Source: Lacticigenium naphthae DSM 19658 (GTDB lineage: Bacteria > Bacillota > Bacilli > Lactobacillales > Carnobacteriaceae_A). Taken from it: DNA of 64,000 bases. The position numbers and the translations under genes were made by a program. Positions 55,854-63,567 of the stretch are shown one piece after another; positions within the stretch are counted from its first letter, which is position 1; each line of letters begins with the position of its first letter. The notes beneath the pieces are model-generated. The model was not told the origin of the DNA. It saw only the letters and a list, made by a program, of their open reading frames with translations, and did no database searches. Location of the stretch: contig NZ_AUEG01000002.1 in assembly GCF_000425865.1 (NCBI RefSeq), forward strand, positions 186,001 through 250,000. The letters run 5' to 3'.

Positions 55854-56329
55854 AAAAATAATCCTCCATGTCTAATTCACTAAGAGAAACAAACAGCTAC
55901 CACTTAAAGTGCCAGTTGCTATTCACTCTACAAATGAGCTATATATTTTATTACTTGTTAACTTTAACACAGAGATAAGGGAGATAGAAAATGAAAGGCT
56001 TCCGTTTAAATAAGAAGAAGGTTTTCATCTATTTTAAATAAAAATAGGGTCGATGGAAAATAAATTTCATTGTTAAATAGCGAATCATCCATGTGGGGAT
56101 TTTACTTTCATTAGTGATGGTTCTGTAGTGTTGATCAAGATAAATGGAGAAGAATAGTATCCAGAAAATCTTCAAGGAGACCGGTAGTTTGGTGAAAACG
56201 GAGAGAAAATCAGAAACGACCAGAAACTACCTTGACAAAAGCAAAGAAAACGCTTAAAATTAAAAGTCCTACATACATTTAGTAGGGAACTGAATCAGTT
56301 CATTTCAAAATTAGAGGATGACTACTGAT
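55854..56329. other. Gap between nox and cdd
   Basis: Contains the palindrome TGTTAACTTTAACA (55956-55969) near the expected nox promoter, and the cdd promoter at 56232-56260. The stretch 55990-56220 shows no coding frame or structure I can support. Confidence 0.45.
56232..56260 (+). promoter_or_regulatory. cdd promoter with possible CcpA-like site
   Basis: TTGACA (56232-56237), 17-base spacer, TAAAAT (56255-56260). The overlapping GAAAACGCTTAAA resembles the core of a catabolite-responsive element but has about three mismatches, so that part is weak. Confidence 0.75.
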
Positions 56330-56728
56330 ATGGAAAAAGAAAAATTAGTTGAAATGGCAAGAGATATTAATAAACGAGCATATGTTCCTTACTCTCATTT
56401 TCCAGTTGGGGCAGCAATTCTCCATCCCGATGGAAAAGTTACCAAAGGAGTCAATGTAGAAAATGTATCTTTCGGTGCAACAAACTGTGCAGAGAGAACA
56501 GCATTCTTCACTGCAATAACCAATGGATATAAAAAAGGTGACTTTAAAGCAATTGCAATTGCAGGAGATACAGAAGACTTTCTTCCTCCGTGTAGCATTT
56601 GTCGCCAAGTCATGGCTGAATTATGTTCGCCTGAAATGCCGGTTTATTTGACAAACGAAAACCATGAAATCAAGGAACTAACATTAAGAGAATTACTTCC
56701 TTACGCATTCACTGATTTGGATATGTAA
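56330..56728 (+). CDS. cdd: Cytidine deaminase
   Basis: About 132 residues, the tetrameric Cdd type. The zinc and catalytic motifs are CAERTAFF and PPCSICRQVM; PVGAAIL and GVNVENVSFG are also conserved. It converts cytidine or deoxycytidine to the uridine forms for salvage. ATG 56330 is eight bases from AGAGGATGA; an upstream ATG at 56318 overlaps that site and is less likely. A single gene with its own promoter and terminator. Confidence 0.96.
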   Translation: MEKEKLVEMARDINKRAYVPYSHFPVGAAILHPDGKVTKGVNVENVSFGATNCAERTAFFTAITNGYKKGDFKAIAIAGDTEDFLPPCSICRQVMAELCSPEMPVYLTNENHEIKELTLRELLPYAFTDLDM

Positions 56729-56752
56729 GATTAGTACGTAGAGGTAAATAGT

Positions 56753-56791
56753 AAGACCCTTTTTAGATTCTTTCTAAAAAGGGTCTTTTAT
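56753..56791 (+). terminator. cdd terminator
   Basis: AAGACCCTTTTTAGA and TCTAAAAAGGGTCTT pair around TTCT, followed by TTA. Confidence 0.85.
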
Positions 56792-56895
56792 TATGGTCAG
56801 AAAAAAGCAAATAGAGCAAAGGGTCATACCGAATTTTAAAAAACGGGAAAGACTTACAAAAAGTAATAAAAAATGGTTGCAATTTAATTGTGTAC

Positions 56896-57020
56896 CCGCT
56901 ATTATTATAAGGTCACGTTATCAAGCTATTACAATAAGTAATCGTAGCGGAAAAGCATTTCGGAAAAAATGCTTTTCTAGGGCCTTTAACCCTATGATGA
57001 TTTCTTTTCTTCGGAAAAGG
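56896..57020 (+). promoter_or_regulatory. Structured leader of the tcyP-like gene
   Basis: Four consecutive stems precede the ATG: CCGCTA (56896-56901) / TAGCGG (56945-56950) enclosing ATTAC-aataa-GTAAT; GAAAAGCATTT (56950-56960) / AAATGCTTTTC (56967-56977); TAGGG / CCCTA (56978-56994); and CTTTTC-UUCG-GAAAAG (57004-57019). There is no T-run, so it is not a simple terminator. No S-box, SAM-III or T-box consensus was found. An 83-codon frame overlapping this region was not called. Confidence 0.5.
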
Positions 57021-57040
57021 CAATTAAAGGAGAGTCTATT

Positions 57041-58432
57041 ATGAATATAATAGGAATAATCAGTGTTCTAGCCCTTTTTGTTTTAACCCTATTTGGTTTG
57101 TGGAAATTACAGCAAAAGCATGTAAAGTTTTCCACACGGGTATTTGCTGGGTTAGGTGCAGGAATCGTGTTTGGTGGGATTTTGCAACTTGTGTTTGGAT
57201 CCCAAGGTGAAGTTACGAATGGAGCTATGGAATGGATCAATATAGTAGGAAACGGATATGTCGCGTTCTTACAAATGTTGATCATGCCGTTGATTTTTGT
57301 ATCCATCATTGGTGCCTTTACCAAAATTCAAGGAAGTAAAGATCTAGGTAAAATAAGTTCTTCTGTTTTGATCACATTGATTGCGACCACTGCAATTGCG
57401 GCGTTTATCGGAGTAATGAGCATCAGGGCATTTAATTTAGATGGTGCTGAATTTGTTCAAGGTGAGCAAGAAACGCAGCGAATCGAACAATTGCAAGAAA
57501 CTCAAACTCAAGTCGCAGATTTATCCATTCCGGAACAAATTACAAACTTTATCCCTCGGAATGTTTTTGCAGATTTATCCAATTCAAGAAGTACAAGTAC
57601 TATTGCTGTGGTAGTTTTCTCTGCATTTGTTGGAGTGGCGTACCTCGGAATCAAACGGAAAGATCCTGAGCAAGCTGAATTCTTCAAAAAAATAATCGAT
57701 AGTTTGTATACTATTGTGATGCGGATCGTAACACTCGTATTGCGCCTGTCTCCATATGGGATATTTGCGCTGATGACCAAAGCGCTGGCGACAAGTGATT
57801 TTGCAGCGTTGCTCAACCTTGGTTTATTCGTAGTGGCTTCGTATGTGGCGATAGCCGTCATGTTTATCATTCACTTGATCATATTAGCAGGTTATAAAGT
57901 CAACCCGATCACTTATGTTAAAAAGGTTTGGCCTGTATTAAGTTTCGCGTTCACATCTCGTTCGAGTGCAGGAACGTTGCCCTTGAATATTGAGACACAA
58001 ACGAAGGCCTTAGGAGTCGATTATGCTTCGGCTAACTTCGCAGGGACATTTGGCTTATCTATCGGGCAAAATGGGTGTGCAGGTATTTATCCTGCAACAC
58101 TGGTAGCGATCGTGGCCCCTTCGATGGGAATCGATATTACGAATCCGATGTACATTTTGACGATCATGGCTGTCGTAGCAATCAGTTCATTTGGTGTTGC
58201 TGGTGTAGGTGGCGGAGCAACTTTCGCTGCATTGATCGTTTTAGGTTCTTTGGGTCTCCCCATTTCTATTGTGGGATTAGTTATCTCAGTCGAACCCATT
58301 ATTGATATGGCAAGAACAATGTTGAATGTTAATGACAGTATGGTAGCTGGTATTATTTCATCAAAAAACATCAATCAGTTTGATGAATCCATGATGAAAA
58401 ACACCCAGGCTGTAATTGAAACAGAGATATAA
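57041..58432 (+). CDS. tcyP: L-cystine sodium symporter TcyP-like
   Basis: 463 residues, dicarboxylate/amino acid:cation symporter family with eight helices and two re-entrant loops. Notable segments are FTSRSSAGTLPLNIETQ in HP1, GLSIGQNGCAGIYPATLVAI in helix 7 and GVAGVGGGATFAALIVL in HP2. The pattern with GQNGCAGIYPA is that of TcyP/YhcL cystine transporters rather than glutamate carriers (GltP). ATG follows TAAAGGAGAG. Expression may be controlled through the structured leader. Confidence 0.9.
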   Translation: MNIIGIISVLALFVLTLFGLWKLQQKHVKFSTRVFAGLGAGIVFGGILQLVFGSQGEVTNGAMEWINIVGNGYVAFLQMLIMPLIFVSIIGAFTKIQGSKDLGKISSSVLITLIATTAIAAFIGVMSIRAFNLDGAEFVQGEQETQRIEQLQETQTQVADLSIPEQITNFIPRNVFADLSNSRSTSTIAVVVFSAFVGVAYLGIKRKDPEQAEFFKKIIDSLYTIVMRIVTLVLRLSPYGIFALMTKALATSDFAALLNLGLFVVASYVAIAVMFIIHLIILAGYKVNPITYVKKVWPVLSFAFTSRSSAGTLPLNIETQTKALGVDYASANFAGTFGLSIGQNGCAGIYPATLVAIVAPSMGIDITNPMYILTIMAVVAISSFGVAGVGGGATFAALIVLGSLGLPISIVGLVISVEPIIDMARTMLNVNDSMVAGIISSKNINQFDESMMKNTQAVIETEI

Positions 58433-58436
58433 AAAA

Positions 58437-58478
58437 AGAGTCTACTTCACTTTAATGTGGAAGTAGGCTCCATTTTTT
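58437..58478. terminator. Terminator between tcyP and sortase genes
   Basis: GAGTCTACTTC (58438-58448) and GAAGTAGGCTC (58460-58470) with one wobble, A-run before and TTTTTTT after, so it can act both ways for these convergent genes. Confidence 0.85.
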
Positions 58479-59245
58479 TATTCACCGGATGTTTCGATAG
58501 CATGAACGTATAAGCGCCCTTCGTCGACGACATAATTGCAAGTAAGCAAACTGAGCATTTTCATATCTTTAGTAGCCTCAGCAGTCAAAGGAACAATGGA
58601 TTTTTCTTTTAAGGACTGAAAATAAGATGCCAATTCTTCTTCTTCAAAAGAAGTTTGAATAAAGTAAGGATCAGCTGGGGCAATATGAACTGAAAAAATT
58701 TCATAAGTCCTTTCGGTATACATATCCTCGAATGTAAAAGTAGGATGGGCAAGTAAGAAGTCTTCTGTCAAAAAGTTCTCTAAATCAGCAAACATATGAC
58801 CATACGCACTATGATGACCGTAAATGATCCCGTGATCATCTTTACCTAAACCAATATTTCGATGATCCATAAAAATCGCACCTAAAACATCTTTTTCTTT
58901 GTAAAAATTATGAGTGAGGTAAAATTCATTGTCTCTTCCTCTTACGACAGGGTAATCAATCTTAGTGTCGTTGAGAGTCAGCCAGCCAACATAATCGGGA
59001 TTTTGAAAAACATACTCAGAAGCCGGATTGGGAGTAAAGGAGTCTTGACTATAAGAAGAGAGGGGTGTCAGAGTTTCAGAAATAGTTGTTTCTTGATCAT
59101 TGTTTGCTTCATTCGAACTTGTTGTGGCATCTTCAACACGCGGAACTGTTACTGGATTCATTTGAGCGTAAATATCTTGGAAGAGAAAAAACAATTGAAT
59201 AAGAAAAGCGAGACTTAAAAAGGTCACGAGTATTTTCTTTTTCAT
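58478..59245 (-). CDS. srtB: Class B sortase
   Basis: About 255 residues: N-terminal membrane helix (ILVTFLSLAFLIQLFFLF), a Ser/Thr/Glu linker, then the sortase barrel with GWLTLNDTKIDYPVV, GAIFMDHRN, catalytic His in IIYGHHSAYGHM, Cys in LSLLTCNY (about 236) and Arg in DEGRLYVH (about 244). The pattern is class B. It cleaves a sorting signal and links the protein to peptidoglycan. The start is one of two adjacent ATGs (59248, 59245) after GAGAGGA. Divergent from a fasciclin-domain gene, its likely substrate. Confidence 0.92.
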   Translation of the reverse strand: MKKKILVTFLSLAFLIQLFFLFQDIYAQMNPVTVPRVEDATTSSNEANNDQETTISETLTPLSSYSQDSFTPNPASEYVFQNPDYVGWLTLNDTKIDYPVVRGRDNEFYLTHNFYKEKDVLGAIFMDHRNIGLGKDDHGIIYGHHSAYGHMFADLENFLTEDFLLAHPTFTFEDMYTERTYEIFSVHIAPADPYFIQTSFEEEELASYFQSLKEKSIVPLTAEATKDMKMLSLLTCNYVVDEGRLYVHAIETSGE

Positions 59246-59379
59246 CACAATTTTCCTCTCTGTTGGAAAGTTTTGAAAACGGGTGTTACTTAATTGATAT
59301 CGCTTTCATATAAAGTTAGTATAAGGTAGTAAAGTTGGAATTGCAACTTTATAAAATCAGAAAAAAGGAGAGAATGGCT

Positions 59380-60033
59380 ATGAAGAAAGTAGTTAATGCG
59401 TTCTTATCTCTCGTCACTTTACTTGCACTTGTCTTTTCCTTTTCGTCACAAGTTTTTGCTGATAATCACGAGGAAGGCTCTCAAGACATTGTCGAAACCG
59501 CTATGGGGAATGAAGATTTCAGTATTTTAGTTTCTGCTTTACAAAAAGCTGAACTAGTAGAAACGCTTCAAGGTGAAGGACCATTCACAGTATTTGCACC
59601 GACCAATGCAGCTTTTGAAGAATTGCTTGCACAACTCGATATTACTGCTGAAGAGTTACTTGCCCAACCTGATTTAGCAAATGTATTGACCTACCATGTA
59701 GTGTCAGGTAAAGTATTGGCCGCTGATTTGACCGATGGAATGGAAGCTGAAACAGTTAACGGAGAAATGATCACGTTTGATTTGAGTGGAGATCCTATGG
59801 TAAATGAATCCATGATTTCTACAACAGACATCGAAGCAACTAATGGTGTGATCCATGTTGTCGATTCTGTTCTTGTTCCATCTAACTTCACATTACAAGA
59901 AGTAGATATGGTAGAAGATGAAGTAGCTCAAACAGGCATTGAAACCAATATTTTCCTTCTTGTTTCATTAATCGCAACTGCATTCGTTGTCATTTATCTC
60001 TTGATCAAAAAACCAGCGAAAATCAACCAATAG
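59380..60033 (+). CDS. Fasciclin (FAS1) domain surface protein with sorting-like tail
   Basis: About 217 residues: signal peptide (cleavage near AxxVFA-DNHEE), one FAS1 domain (DIVETAMGNEDFSILVSALQ, GPFTVFAPTNAAFEEL, NVLTYHVVSGKV, ATNGVIHVVDSVLVP), then an acidic linker. It ends VAQTGIETN, a 19-residue hydrophobic helix and KKPAKINQ. That end has the shape of a cell-wall sorting signal with AQTG in place of LPxTG. FAS1 domains mediate adhesion. ATG 59380 is ten bases after AAAGGAG; upstream ATGs are too close to it. Divergent from srtB. Confidence 0.88.
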   Translation: MKKVVNAFLSLVTLLALVFSFSSQVFADNHEEGSQDIVETAMGNEDFSILVSALQKAELVETLQGEGPFTVFAPTNAAFEELLAQLDITAEELLAQPDLANVLTYHVVSGKVLAADLTDGMEAETVNGEMITFDLSGDPMVNESMISTTDIEATNGVIHVVDSVLVPSNFTLQEVDMVEDEVAQTGIETNIFLLVSLIATAFVVIYLLIKKPAKINQ

Positions 60034-60053
60034 GTTTTTGTCTTACACAAAAG

Positions 60054-60228
60054 AAAGTGGAGCAAAACCGGTCAGACCCGAATAGAGCTGCACGTACTCT
60101 ATCCGTAAATTGCAGGCCAATGACTATAGCACCATCAAGTGGCTGTCGGGTCTGTTTTTTGGAGCACCTTTTAGAAAGTACGATTTGTAAAATGAGTAGA
60201 AGCTGAGACTTTTGTCTCAGCTTCTTTT
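60054..60228 (+). repeat. Dispersed two-hairpin intergenic repeat, copy C
   Basis: Outer arms CAGACCCGA / TCGGGTCTG followed by TTTTTT, with the ACTCTATCCGTAAAT module inside but without the GATAGTC / GACTATC stem. The 3' hairpin is GAAGCTGAGAC, loop TTTT, GTCTCAGCTTC (60199-60224). Compared with copy A two stem pairs have changed on both sides, so pairing is preserved. It follows the fasciclin gene and may terminate it. Confidence 0.92.
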
Positions 60229-60370
60229 GTCGTGGATAGTTATAATTTGAGTAGAATACATTCTTGAAGCGTAGTTGATTTCTGGAAGAGAGATTATTTG
60301 CTATACTGAAATTAAAGAAAGCCTATACAATAGTGAGAAAAAGGGTTCAATAGAAAGTCGAGGAATCGGT

Positions 60371-62242
60371 ATGACAATTCTAGAAAAAAGACAAATAGAC
60401 ACCATACTTAGCCAGCTTGAAAACATATGGCTATTGGTAGAAGAAAAAGATACGCTCTCTTTTGAAAATGAAATGAAACGGTATCAGTTAATGAAAAATA
60501 AGAATACTGCGGGGAAAGAGCTTGAAAAAGAATGGGTAAAAATGCAGGCTGCAGTAGACAATTTGAACTACCGAGTAACCGGTAGTCTGCGAAAGCTAGT
60601 GCATTATTTAGAGGAAGAAAAGTTAGATAGCTCCTTTTTTGAAAAGGAGAACCGCATGTTTCCTATATATAGGAAGTTCTCACTTGTTCCAAAAAAATGG
60701 ACATTGAAACGTATTCCGTTTACGGATCGTGTGAACCAGGCACGTTCTTTTGCCACACTCTCTTTTTTTAAAGAGGAAAATAGTGCAGAATACAAAAAAG
60801 CAATCCTTGCAACTATGCAGAAGAGGAATCAATATTTTACAGAGCATAAAAAATGGTTTGAACTGAAGAGATGGTTGATTCAAATTTTTCAAAATAGCAT
60901 CACAAGAAGCCAAGCAAACCTATTGAATAAAACAAAGAAAAAAAGTGGTGTATCTGATTTGATCAAAGAAAGACTGCTGATGCAAGAATTGCTTTTATTT
61001 GAATATGAAAAGTTCTTTTATACAAAGACAGAGCAAAGAGCTTATATTCAGTGGTTGATTTATCGGCATACAAAGGAAATATGGTCCACCATCGAATATA
61101 TAGATGCTCGTGAGTCGTTGCCTTCTTTACAGACCTCAGGATTTTCTGGTTCAGCGCTGATTGTTCATTCAAATGAAGAATCAGAAGTATTGTATAACTT
61201 TAAAGGAAGTGAGAATTCTTTAAAGGTATTGAAAAACAAACTGCCGACACACTTTTATCAAGATTTTTTGTTAGAAGCATACAAAGATTGGAAGTATAAT
61301 GTAGAATCCGTCATGATTGGAGTGGGCACAGAACAATTGGACGATGCTCAGAAATTTATTCAGGTCATCGATAATAAAATCTCAACTAAAAGGTTTGCAG
61401 CTTATGGTATAGGTCATTCACTTGGTGGAAATCTACTGCAAATGATCCAACTGATCGATCAGCCATTTAAACACATCTATTCGGTGAATGCTTCACCGAT
61501 CCAAATGAAGCAAGTTTTTCAAGTGGCTCCTGATCTTTTTCAAAAGGAAGAATGGGAAGAAATATTTACTTCTCCTGCTTCCTGGGATTCATCGACAAAC
61601 ATGGATTTAAAAAGGCGGTTAGCAAAAAAAGAATTTCACAGTTTCCATGACCGTTTTCAACAAGATTTTACAGGTTTGTTCTTATTTATCCATTCGACAG
61701 CATTTCTGGGAGATACAGAACAAGTGACGATGCCTGTTTTTACTTTTCACTTTCCAAAAAATATGCGCTTATACATTAGCGAGAAAGATATGTATGTCTG
61801 GTATGATACGATTTATCAGGTGTTCGCCTCACTAGATGAACAACCGTCACTGGGTGATTTTTATCATGAATTGACGGAACGATTGAAACATACTTTATTG
61901 ACGGATCACCCTTCTTTAAATCAACAAGCGTTGTTTACGTTGATCCGACATTTTTTTGATTTTGTCGAGGCAGCTCAAATGATACAAACAGAAGATTTAC
62001 AGTCAGTATATCGGACGTTGGATACACTTGAACATACACAGTGGGAAGAGAAGAATCACGAAAAAGATCAAACGTATAGAAGGGAAGTACTTTTACTATT
62101 CCAGCAAGTATTTAGTTTACGCCATGTCATCGATACCGAAACGATTAAACTGTTAAGTTATTTTCATCGATTGGATGGTTTTAAAGAATTATATAAAAAA
62201 ATGGAATTAAAAAGGAATAAAAAGGAGAGTAAAAGCAATTAG
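60371..62242 (+). CDS. Large GHSLGG alpha/beta-hydrolase-like protein
   Basis: About 623 residues, no signal peptide. The N-terminal 230 residues are Lys/Glu-rich and helical. A lipase-like nucleophile elbow GIGHSLGGNL (Ser about 350) is preceded by a region that fits a class 3 lipase fold (SGSALIVHSNEESEVLYNFKGS, shown in part). The C-terminal 250 residues are helical with no family I know. The substrate is unknown; it may act on lipids or esters inside the cell or be released without a signal. ATG 60371 follows CGAGGAAT; a longer frame from 60275 lacks a ribosome site. Confidence 0.75.
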   Translation: MTILEKRQIDTILSQLENIWLLVEEKDTLSFENEMKRYQLMKNKNTAGKELEKEWVKMQAAVDNLNYRVTGSLRKLVHYLEEEKLDSSFFEKENRMFPIYRKFSLVPKKWTLKRIPFTDRVNQARSFATLSFFKEENSAEYKKAILATMQKRNQYFTEHKKWFELKRWLIQIFQNSITRSQANLLNKTKKKSGVSDLIKERLLMQELLLFEYEKFFYTKTEQRAYIQWLIYRHTKEIWSTIEYIDARESLPSLQTSGFSGSALIVHSNEESEVLYNFKGSENSLKVLKNKLPTHFYQDFLLEAYKDWKYNVESVMIGVGTEQLDDAQKFIQVIDNKISTKRFAAYGIGHSLGGNLLQMIQLIDQPFKHIYSVNASPIQMKQVFQVAPDLFQKEEWEEIFTSPASWDSSTNMDLKRRLAKKEFHSFHDRFQQDFTGLFLFIHSTAFLGDTEQVTMPVFTFHFPKNMRLYISEKDMYVWYDTIYQVFASLDEQPSLGDFYHELTERLKHTLLTDHPSLNQQALFTLIRHFFDFVEAAQMIQTEDLQSVYRTLDTLEHTQWEEKNHEKDQTYRREVLLLFQQVFSLRHVIDTETIKLLSYFHRLDGFKELYKKMELKRNKKESKSN

Positions 62243-62403
62243 TTTGCTCTTTTTTACAGTATTGCGAACAAATTGAAAAGTTTATAAAATAATTTGCACT
62301 AAACCCTTGAATAAAAGATTGAGCTTTCATATAATGATAAAACAATTAAAATTTTATAATCGTTTTATCATTTTTGGACAGGAAGTAAAAACTAGGGGGA
62401 ATA

Positions 62404-63567
62404 ATGATGAAAAAGTGGGTAGCGGGTGTGACAGCAATGACTGCTTTGGTATTGGCAGGATGCGAAGCAGGAGATGTAGAAAACCAGACAGGTGATGAAG
62501 GATCCGTGAAATTGGGCTCCATGTTTGAATTGACAGGAGCTGTTTCGGCGTACGGAAATGCAGAGGCGAATGCGGTGAGTTTGGCTATCGATGAAATCAA
62601 TGAAGAGGGTGGAATCGATGGAAAAACGATCGAGTTATTTGAATACGATACAAAATCAGAAGATACAGAGGCGGCGAGTGTAGCAACTAAATTAGCAACT
62701 CAAGATGGTGTAAGTGCCATTATTGGACCCGCAACTTCTGGGGCTACTAAATCAGCAATTCCAAGTGTGAACAGGGCAGAAGTACCATTGGTCTCACCAT
62801 CAGCTACAGACGATACGGTGACTATTGACGGAAACGGCGATGTCCAACCATTTGCATACCGAATCGGATTTCAAGACTCATTCCAGGGTGTATCTTTAGC
62901 AAAATTTGCTGAAACTGAATTAGATGCGCAAACAGCTATTATTTTGGGCGACAACTCGAGCGATTATGCCACCGGATTATCCGCTACATTTAAAGAAAAT
63001 TTTAGTGGTGAAGTGGTAGGGGAAGAAAACTTCACTGCTGATGAGTCTGATTTTAGTGCGGTCCTAACACGTATTAAAAATGAAGACTTCGATGTACTCT
63101 TTGTACCAGGCTATTATGAGCAAGCTGGTTTGATCATCAAACAAGCCCGTGAAATGGGAATCGAACAACCTATTTTAGGACCAGATGGATTCGGGAATGA
63201 TACATTGATCGACTTAGCAGGTGCAGGGAATGTGTCGGATGTTTATTATACATCGCATTTTTCTGTAAATAGTGAGGATCCAAAAGTCCAAGGATTTATT
63301 GAAAGTTATGAAGAAACGTATGGTTCTGAACCGGATATGTTTTCGGCTTTAGCTTATGATGCAGTCTTTGTAGTCAAGCAAGCAATCGAAGAAGCAGGAG
63401 ACAATGCGCCGACAGCTGTTAATGATGCTTTAGCAGAATTGTCAGACTTTGAAGGAATTACTGGTGCCTTTTCATTTGATGAAAATCACAACCCTATTAA
63501 ATCTGTCACGATCGTTGAATTGCAAGATGGAGAAGAAGTCAATACGACAGAAGTCTCTCCTAAGTAA
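62404..63567 (+). CDS. livJ: Branched-chain amino acid ABC transporter substrate-binding lipoprotein
   Basis: 387 residues: lipoprotein signal with lipobox LAGC (Cys 20), then a type I periplasmic-binding fold (KLGSMFELTGAVSAYGNAEANAV, shown in part; IGPATSGATKSAIPSVN; DVLFVPGYYEQAGLIIKQAREMG). It captures leucine, isoleucine, valine or a related amino acid for the Liv ABC transporter. ATG 62404 follows AGGGGG. An attenuator-like terminator lies between it and livH. Confidence 0.92.
   Translation: MMKKWVAGVTAMTALVLAGCEAGDVENQTGDEGSVKLGSMFELTGAVSAYGNAEANAVSLAIDEINEEGGIDGKTIELFEYDTKSEDTEAASVATKLATQDGVSAIIGPATSGATKSAIPSVNRAEVPLVSPSATDDTVTIDGNGDVQPFAYRIGFQDSFQGVSLAKFAETELDAQTAIILGDNSSDYATGLSATFKENFSGEVVGEENFTADESDFSAVLTRIKNEDFDVLFVPGYYEQAGLIIKQAREMGIEQPILGPDGFGNDTLIDLAGAGNVSDVYYTSHFSVNSEDPKVQGFIESYEETYGSEPDMFSALAYDAVFVVKQAIEEAGDNAPTAVNDALAELSDFEGITGAFSFDENHNPIKSVTIVELQDGEEVNTTEVSPK

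What the first reader, a model, noticed from the sequence alone, without database searches (positions are those of the whole stretch)
58478..60033. Class B sortase facing a fasciclin protein with a non-standard sorting tail
The fasciclin protein ends VAQTGIETN, a 19-residue hydrophobic helix and KKPAKINQ, the shape of a sorting signal but with AQTG rather than LPxTG or NPQTN. The class B sortase next door, in divergent orientation, is the natural enzyme. This could be a dedicated sortase-substrate pair with a new recognition motif and an adhesive FAS1 domain.
Basis: partly seen in the sequence, partly recalled or inferred. Interest (0 to 1): 0.55.

Follow-up and report, generated by a model that had tools for sequence, protein, structure and literature searches.

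The report
Dedicated class-B sortase–fasciclin wall-anchoring pair
A bacterial surface protein with a fasciclin domain and the enzyme that probably glues it to the cell wall travel together as a two-gene unit in three bacterial families, and the attachment signal differs from those of the well-studied enzymes of this class.

Summary
In detail: a class B sortase (58478-59248, -) lies divergently beside a FAS1 protein (59380-60033, +) ending VAQTGIETN + 19 hydrophobic residues + KKPAKINQ. Of 395 genomes sampled from the order, 25 have FAS1; 22 of these have the tailed form, and all 22 carry a class B sortase divergently next to it. Distinct FAS1 frames read: 23 with tail and no lipobox, 11 with lipobox and no tail. 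The conserved signal is V-[A/P]-x-T-G-[IVLF]-E (V, T, G, E invariant in 23 of 23), so not "QTG". In 4 of 22 genomes this sortase is the only one found. In the 395 genomes the tail profile strongly hits only these tails and one relic. The 22 sortases group together (98/98); in all, the position of a serine that contacts P4 Asn in a model of Bacillus anthracis SrtB is I/V/M/L, fitting P4 Val. Best reading: a one-enzyme, usually one-substrate class B system that cuts V[AP]xT|G and fixes FAS1 to peptidoglycan. Cleavage, wall linkage and adhesion are inferred, not shown. New variant of a known kind.

The parts
58478..59248 (-). Class B sortase gene (256 aa from GTG; ATG at the second codon also possible)
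   Evidence: TIGR03064 170.3 bits over cut-off 153.75; best solved relative Lmo2181, 5jcv, E 1.2e-39
58814..58816 (-). Codon of catalytic His145
   Evidence: Invariant in 23 of 23 paired sortases; aligns with H140 of B. anthracis SrtB
58538..58540 (-). Codon of catalytic Cys237
   Evidence: Invariant in 23 of 23; aligns with C233 of B. anthracis SrtB
58514..58516 (-). Codon of catalytic Arg245
   Evidence: Invariant in 23 of 23; aligns with R243 of B. anthracis SrtB
58544..58546 (-). Codon of Leu235, at the position of the P4-contacting Ser231 of B. anthracis SrtB
   Evidence: I 9, V 6, M 6, L 1 in the 22 pairs of the order, A in L005; two places before the Cys the 30 other class B sortases printed read S (they come from only 4 genera)
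58661..58663 (-). Codon of Phe196, at the position of the P4-contacting Tyr191 of B. anthracis SrtB
   Evidence: F in 17, Y in 5 of 22 pairs, A in L005
59249..59379 (.). Divergent intergenic region, 131 bp, with promoter-like sites facing both ways
   Evidence: sites at 59294-59322 (+) and 59346-59318 (-), 9 of 12 matches each; in the stretch scanned 5 found, 5.2 expected by chance
59365..59370 (+). AAGGAG, likely ribosome-binding site of the FAS1 gene
   Evidence: Read; 9 nt before ATG 59380
59380..60033 (+). FAS1 (fasciclin) surface protein gene, 217 aa
   Evidence: PF02469 117.6 bits
59380..59460 (+). Signal peptide MKKVVNAFLSLVTLLALVFSFSSQVFA (cleavage point by eye)
   Evidence: Sequence and hydropathy; no lipobox by pattern
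59515..59880 (+). FAS1 domain, residues 46-167
   Evidence: PF02469 match
59923..59949 (+). Sorting motif VAQTG|IETN, predicted cut between T185 and G186
   Evidence: V, T, G, E invariant in 23 of 23 tails (alignment of 18 of them)
59950..60006 (+). Hydrophobic helix of the sorting signal, residues 191-209
   Evidence: Mean hydropathy 2.95
60007..60030 (+). Positively charged end KKPAKINQ

Best explanation
This is a dedicated anchoring pair. The FAS1 protein is exported by its signal peptide and held at the membrane by the C-terminal helix. The neighbouring class B sortase cuts the tail between Thr and Gly of V-[A/P]-x-T|G-x-E and transfers the FAS1 protein to peptidoglycan. Shown here: the gene pair, catalytic residues in place, conserved motif, constant neighbourhood, genomes where it is the only sortase found, no other protein with this tail in the genomes searched, and a changed residue at a P4-contact position. 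Inferred from sortase biochemistry: cleavage and wall linkage. Inferred from other FAS1 proteins: a role in adhesion or cell contact.
For: Adjacent and divergent in 22 of 22 genomes with a tailed FAS1 (of 395 searched), in 7 genera of 3 families; within family f1 the pair sits in three different gene neighbourhoods. 23 tails keep V, T, G, E without exception while most helix columns vary (18 of 23 aligned). Tail and lipobox exclude each other in the frames read, 23 to 11. The 3 of 25 FAS1 genomes whose FAS1 is only a lipoprotein (G017, G147, G228) have no TIGR03064 match. In G011, G035, G069 and G083 the paired enzyme is the only PF04203 match and TIGR01076 finds none. Tail profile: 24 strong matches (E 3.2e-16 or better), the 23 tails and the G004 relic; next best E 3.8e-4. 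The 22 sortases group together, 98/98. Ser231-equivalent is aliphatic in 22 of 22, matching Val at P4. In G004 both genes are broken.
Against: No biochemistry. The window's own tail is not listed for PF00746 at E 0.1; of 23 intact tails 5 pass that family's cut-off, 5 are listed below it, 13 are not listed. Published work cited in PMC5148588 (passages) finds alanine at P3 unfavourable for class A and B sortases, yet 14 of 23 tails have it, and the P3-contact residues are unchanged. 18 of 22 genomes have other sortases that might act on the tail. Promoter-like sites are no more than chance. The genomes are related, so 22 is not 22 independent events. Two FAS1 proteins outside the order have LPETG or MPNTG tails and no sortase within the 9.6 and 15 kb read.
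Confidence: 0.86

Rival explanations
1. The housekeeping class A sortase anchors FAS1 and the class B sortase is a neighbour with another task.
For: Another sortase away from the pilus-like cluster exists in the window's genome (G000:C6:17553; class A by recall); the tail is LPxTG-like, and 5 of 23 tails pass PF00746.
Against: In 4 of 22 genomes no other sortase was found and the tail is kept. Adjacency is 22 of 22. P3 is Ala in 14 of 23 tails, and S. aureus SrtA does not hydrolyse an alanine-P3 peptide (PMC5148588, passages). The two LPxTG proteins beside the pilus-like sortases of this genome carry LPSTG and LPQTG, not VAQTG.
Confidence: 0.07
2. The tail is only a membrane anchor: FAS1 stays in the membrane and the motif is not cut.
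For: A hydrophobic helix plus lysines would anchor by itself; lipoprotein FAS1 paralogues show that membrane tethering is used by this family.
Against: V, T, G, E before the helix are invariant in 23 of 23 while most helix columns drift; in 22 of 22 genomes the tail comes with the sortase.
Confidence: 0.04
3. The sortase polymerises FAS1 into a fibre, as pilus-type class B enzymes do.
For: A class B sortase takes part in S. pyogenes pilus assembly (PMC3019223, PMC7900414, search listing); two tailed FAS1 genes flank the sortase in G012.
Against: 21 of 22 genomes have a single tailed FAS1 with one FAS1 domain. No second pilin or SipA-like gene was noticed beside the pair; this, and a pilin lysine motif, were not searched for.
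Confidence: 0.03

Closest known systems
Class B sortase SrtB with IsdC (S. aureus NPQTN, B. anthracis NPKTG)
   Same: Class B by sequence, same catalytic triad, one known substrate per enzyme (PMC11987632, passages and section 6 part 1); that the two are encoded together is recalled. Acidic residues just after the pentapeptide matter there (P2' Asp, with P3' Glu also tested) and an acidic residue (P3' Glu) is invariant here
   Different: Substrate is FAS1, not a haem-pathway protein; P4 is Val, not Asn; the Ser231/Tyr191 contacts to P4 are I/V/M/L and mostly Phe; Cys-to-Arg distance 8 instead of 10
Clostridioides difficile SrtB, (S/P)PXTG, sole sortase
   Same: A class B enzyme that cuts an xPxTG signal and is its genome's only sortase (PMC4155245, abstract and passages)
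   Different: There seven (S/P)PXTG substrates are predicted (eight with NVQTG, which it did not cleave), with Ser or Pro at P4; here one linked substrate (two in G012) with Val at P4 and Ala or Pro at P3
Class E sortase, LAXTG
   Same: Alanine at P3 (PMC5148588, abstract and passages); VAXTG signals were noted in Bifidobacterium bifidum with a class E enzyme (PMC8603203, passages)
   Different: Different sortase class; class E enzymes there act on several or many proteins
Bacterial FAS1 proteins (mycobacterial Mpb70/Mpb83, Rhodobacter Fdp)
   Same: Bacterial FAS1 proteins; Fdp is described as important for adherence (PMC7561615, abstract start in the listing); Mpb70/83 are reviewed in PMC6032426 (12 passages seen)
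   Different: None of the passages seen describes sortase anchoring; fasciclin with sortase found one paper, on another subject

Membership tests
Class B sortase (TIGR03064) | Profile score over curated cut-off | tested here: met
   170.3 bits against 153.75; the 22 paired sortases are over the cut-off
Class B sortase (TIGR03064) | Catalytic His, Cys, Arg | tested here: met
   H145, C237, R245, invariant in 23 of 23
Class B sortase (TIGR03064) | N-terminal membrane anchor | tested here: met
   Hydrophobic stretch from residue 6, mean hydropathy 2.28
Class B sortase (TIGR03064) | Sequence relatives with solved structure are class B | tested here: met
   15 hits, most named sortase B, the rest unnamed or hypothetical, none named another class
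Class B sortase (TIGR03064) | Sortase fold | tested here: inconclusive
   AlphaFold model from two sequences has mean pLDDT 54.8; no fold search was run
NPQTN/NPKTG haem-type SrtB subfamily | Substrate motif with Asn at P4 | tested here: not met
   P4 is Val in 23 of 23 tails
Sortase substrate (cell wall sorting signal) | Signal peptide, pentapeptide, hydrophobic helix, positive end | tested here: met
Sortase substrate (PF00746 Gram_pos_anchor) | Score over the family's cut-off | tested here: not met
   Window copy not listed at E 0.1; 5 of 23 intact tails over the cut-off
Sortase substrate | Covalent linkage to peptidoglycan | not testable with these tools
   Needs fractionation or mass spectrometry
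Fasciclin family PF02469 | Profile score over cut-off | tested here: met
   117.6 bits against 22
Class E sortase system (LAXTG) | Enzyme of class E | tested here: not met
   Enzyme passes the class B equivalog cut-off

The most novel reading that the evidence does not exclude
The FAS1-linked enzymes are a separate specificity group of class B sortases: P4 switched from Asn to Val with loss of the hydroxyl contacts, Ala accepted at P3, and an extended motif V[AP]xTGxE. They serve one linked substrate and can be a genome's only sortase, so some Lactobacillales keep a whole sortase pathway for a single fasciclin protein.
Probability: 0.65. Interest if true: 0.6.

Novelty: new variant of a known kind. 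Interest (0 to 1): 0.5.

Why it matters
Class B sortases are little studied, and the best-known ones read Asn, Ser or Pro at P4. A compact natural pair in which enzyme and signal appear to have changed together gives a clean test of how P4 and P3 specificity is set, adds a possible signal orthogonal to LPxTG for protein labelling, and shows how a fasciclin domain, elsewhere in these bacteria a lipoprotein, comes to be placed on the wall.

Tried and rejected
A first sortase finder by regular expression found no partner sortases and was replaced by blastp; the same kind of pattern missed known sortases, so the statement that G418 and G527 have none nearby was checked again with profiles (no match at E 1 in L202, L207-L210; the control rows L211, L212 were found, but by a profile built from themselves). 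Structure prediction with a two-sequence alignment gave mean pLDDT 54.8 and was not used; no fold search was run. Plasmid searches: 26 records match the sortase and 208 the FAS1 protein, all under 60% identity; adjacency was not checked there. Promoter scan: no more than chance. Rfam: nothing in 56000-62500. That N114/D120 of the sortase (D/H in the VPxTG genus; 14 against 8 sequences; a third column, 30, also separates them) set Ala or Pro at P3 is kept only as a lead: one phylogenetic switch. That the Tyr after the catalytic His (21 of 22) equals the class E P3 tyrosine was dropped, since that one is in the beta3/beta4 loop (PMC5148588). The pair as a general trait of the phylum was rejected: 6 of 398 genomes have FAS1, the window's own included; of the other 5, G418 and G527 have LPETG and MPNTG tails without a sortase in the stretch read, and G485, G644 and G787 have no such tail. 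Novelty of VPxTG as letters was not claimed: VPETG occurs in two streptococcal papers and VAXTG in one on Bifidobacterium (listing, passages).

Full report
What is there. The window lies in a 2.13 Mb genome (G000, 32 contigs). The tools name neither it nor its order; Lactobacillales is my inference from gene content and relatives. At 58478-59248 (-) is a class B sortase and at 59380-60033 (+) a FAS1 protein, 131 bp apart and divergent. Profile scores are 170.3 bits on TIGR03064 and 117.6 bits on PF02469. The genome has three further sortases: two beside two LPxTG proteins of 911 and 579 aa (a pilus-like cluster; LPSTG and LPQTG) and one on contig C6.

Is the pair real? In the same family (27 genomes) 12 match the FAS1 protein and 11 the sortase. 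Ten carry the intact pair. G004 has remains of both: the sortase match begins at residue 73 and is interrupted, and it abuts a 38-aa relic of the FAS1 tail. G017 has FAS1 without tail and no sortase match. Over 395 genomes of the order, PF02469 matches 25 and TIGR03064 matches 106, 92 of them over the cut-off; so 70 genomes have a class B sortase over the cut-off without a tailed FAS1. Reading the tails gives 22 genomes with a tailed FAS1; coordinates and refetched stretches show the class B sortase beside it and divergent in all 22. The other 3 FAS1 genomes (G017, G147, G228) have lipoprotein FAS1 and no TIGR03064 match. The 22 come from 7 genera of 3 families. Within family f1 the neighbours differ between genera while the pair persists (in g2 beside a 181-aa protein that looks like PyrR and one of about 568 aa, other genes in g1 and g9). 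Neighbours in the other two families were not compared. Fisher tests: 1.4e-15 by genome, 3.7e-5 by genus, to be read with the relatedness in mind.

The signal. 23 tailed proteins (G012 has two: one divergent from the sortase, one beyond its 3' end) all read V-[AP]-x-T-G-[IVLF]-E-[STG]-[NS] before the helix. P3 is Ala in 14 and Pro in 9; all nine Pro are in genus g2. In the alignment of 18 of the 23, V, T, G and E are invariant while most helix columns vary; two columns upstream (F, L) are invariant too. x is Q, E, K or A, so QTG is not the conserved unit. A profile of the tail finds in 395 genomes 24 strong matches (E 3.2e-16 or better): the 23 tails and the G004 relic; the next is E 3.8e-4. 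So no second substrate with this tail was seen. On PF00746 5 of 23 tails exceed the cut-off, 5 are listed below it and 13 are not listed at E 0.1, the window's among them. The distinct FAS1 frames read from the loci fall into 23 with tail and no lipobox and 11 with lipobox and no tail, plus one frame cut by a locus end (lipobox by a loose pattern); one of the 11 is interrupted (G006). Three further FAS1 matches (G035:C1:1172299, G097:C236, G372:C1:2302671) were not read.

Which enzyme? In 22 of 22 genomes PF04203 finds the paired sortase; in 4 (G011, G035, G069, G083; completeness 95-100%) it finds nothing else, and TIGR01076 finds nothing in these four at E 0.1, while it finds the three other sortases of G000 and one in G103. 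In G011 and G035 the only PF00746 match at E 0.1 is the FAS1 tail. This is the strongest evidence that the class B enzyme handles the tail.

Anatomy of the enzyme. A tree of 53 class B sortases (23 paired; 30 others, the best-scoring and from 4 genera only, many near-copies) puts the 22 paired enzymes of the order on one side of a branch (98/98); the Clostridiaceae MAG enzyme joins them with weak support (87/35) and a long branch, and the root is a midpoint. Against the residues that PMC11987632 (section 6, part 1 read) assigns in an AlphaFold2 model of B. anthracis SrtB, the P3 contacts L106, F121, Y138 are unchanged in 22 of 22, whereas Ser231, which contacts Asn at P4, is I 9, V 6, M 6, L 1, and Tyr191 is F in 17 and Y in 5. 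The 30 others read Ser two places before the Cys. The paired enzymes also have Cys and Arg 8 apart instead of 10 as in the first 18 other rows, and Tyr after the catalytic His in 21 of 22 (the window has His). An aliphatic S4 site fits the invariant Val at P4; this is an inference from alignment with a modelled complex. It does not explain the Ala at P3.

Outside the order. A Clostridiaceae MAG (L005) has the same divergent layout, with two FAS1 domains and MPQTG; it was the only one of the 19 loci whose surroundings I read. In a phylum sample of 398 genomes 6 have FAS1, the window's own included; G418 ends LPETG and G527 MPNTG without a sortase in the 9.6 and 15 kb read, and three have no such tail. 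So FAS1 with an LPxTG-like tail is wider than the pair.

How it works. Most likely the FAS1 protein is exported, paused at the membrane by the tail helix, cut between T and G by the neighbouring sortase and joined to peptidoglycan; the lipoprotein paralogues stay at the membrane. Adhesion is suggested by other bacterial FAS1 proteins (PMC7561615, listing; PMC6032426, passages). None of these steps was tested.

Known or new. Class B enzymes with one known substrate (NPQTN, NPKTG; PMC11987632, passages) and a sole class B sortase ((S/P)PXTG, C. difficile; PMC4155245, abstract and passages) are known; Ala at P3 is known for class E (PMC5148588, passages); VAXTG was noted in Bifidobacterium with a class E enzyme (PMC8603203, passages), and VPETG occurs in two streptococcal papers (listing). 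A class B sortase with a FAS1 substrate was not found in print: fasciclin with sortase gave one paper on another subject, with sortase B none, with LPXTG none, and sortase B with Carnobacterium one paper on meat spoilage (listing). The library holds open-licence papers only.

Noticed in passing
L211 378-6588 (G000:C2:176377-182587, about 3.4 kb before the window starts): Pilus-like cluster: two LPxTG proteins of 911 and 579 aa (LPSTG, LPQTG) followed by two sortases, class C by recall.
   Followed up: partly
60073-60160 (+): Between FAS1 and the next gene a long hairpin whose arms read CAGACCCG (60073-60080) and CGGGTCTG (60147-60154), followed by TTTTTT. A 31-base piece occurs once in the window; a 26-base piece occurs in 5 of 212 loci, all copies of this same place. 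A second hairpin with 12 pairs lies at 60198-60225.
   Followed up: partly
L057 5243-6672 (G004): Both genes of the pair have decayed: the front parts of both are missing, the sortase remainder is interrupted, a 38-aa tail frame of FAS1 remains, and frames that look like an IS3-type transposase (by eye) lie beside them.
   Followed up: partly
L064 4836-7221 (G012): Two tailed FAS1 genes flank one sortase, the only case of two substrates among the 22 genomes.
   Followed up: no
L034, L037-L042, L102, L112, L122, L125: FAS1 frames with a lipobox and no sorting tail occur in several of the same genera; G147 has one with three FAS1 domains in a 623-codon frame.
   Followed up: partly
G023:C21:17875-18159: Weak partial match to the class B sortase model (23 bits, profile 8-97) in a genome of the same family without FAS1.
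   Followed up: no
60275-62242 (+): A 655-aa protein after the FAS1 gene has a lipase-like GHSLGG motif; not examined, and not beside the pair in the other genera.
   Followed up: no
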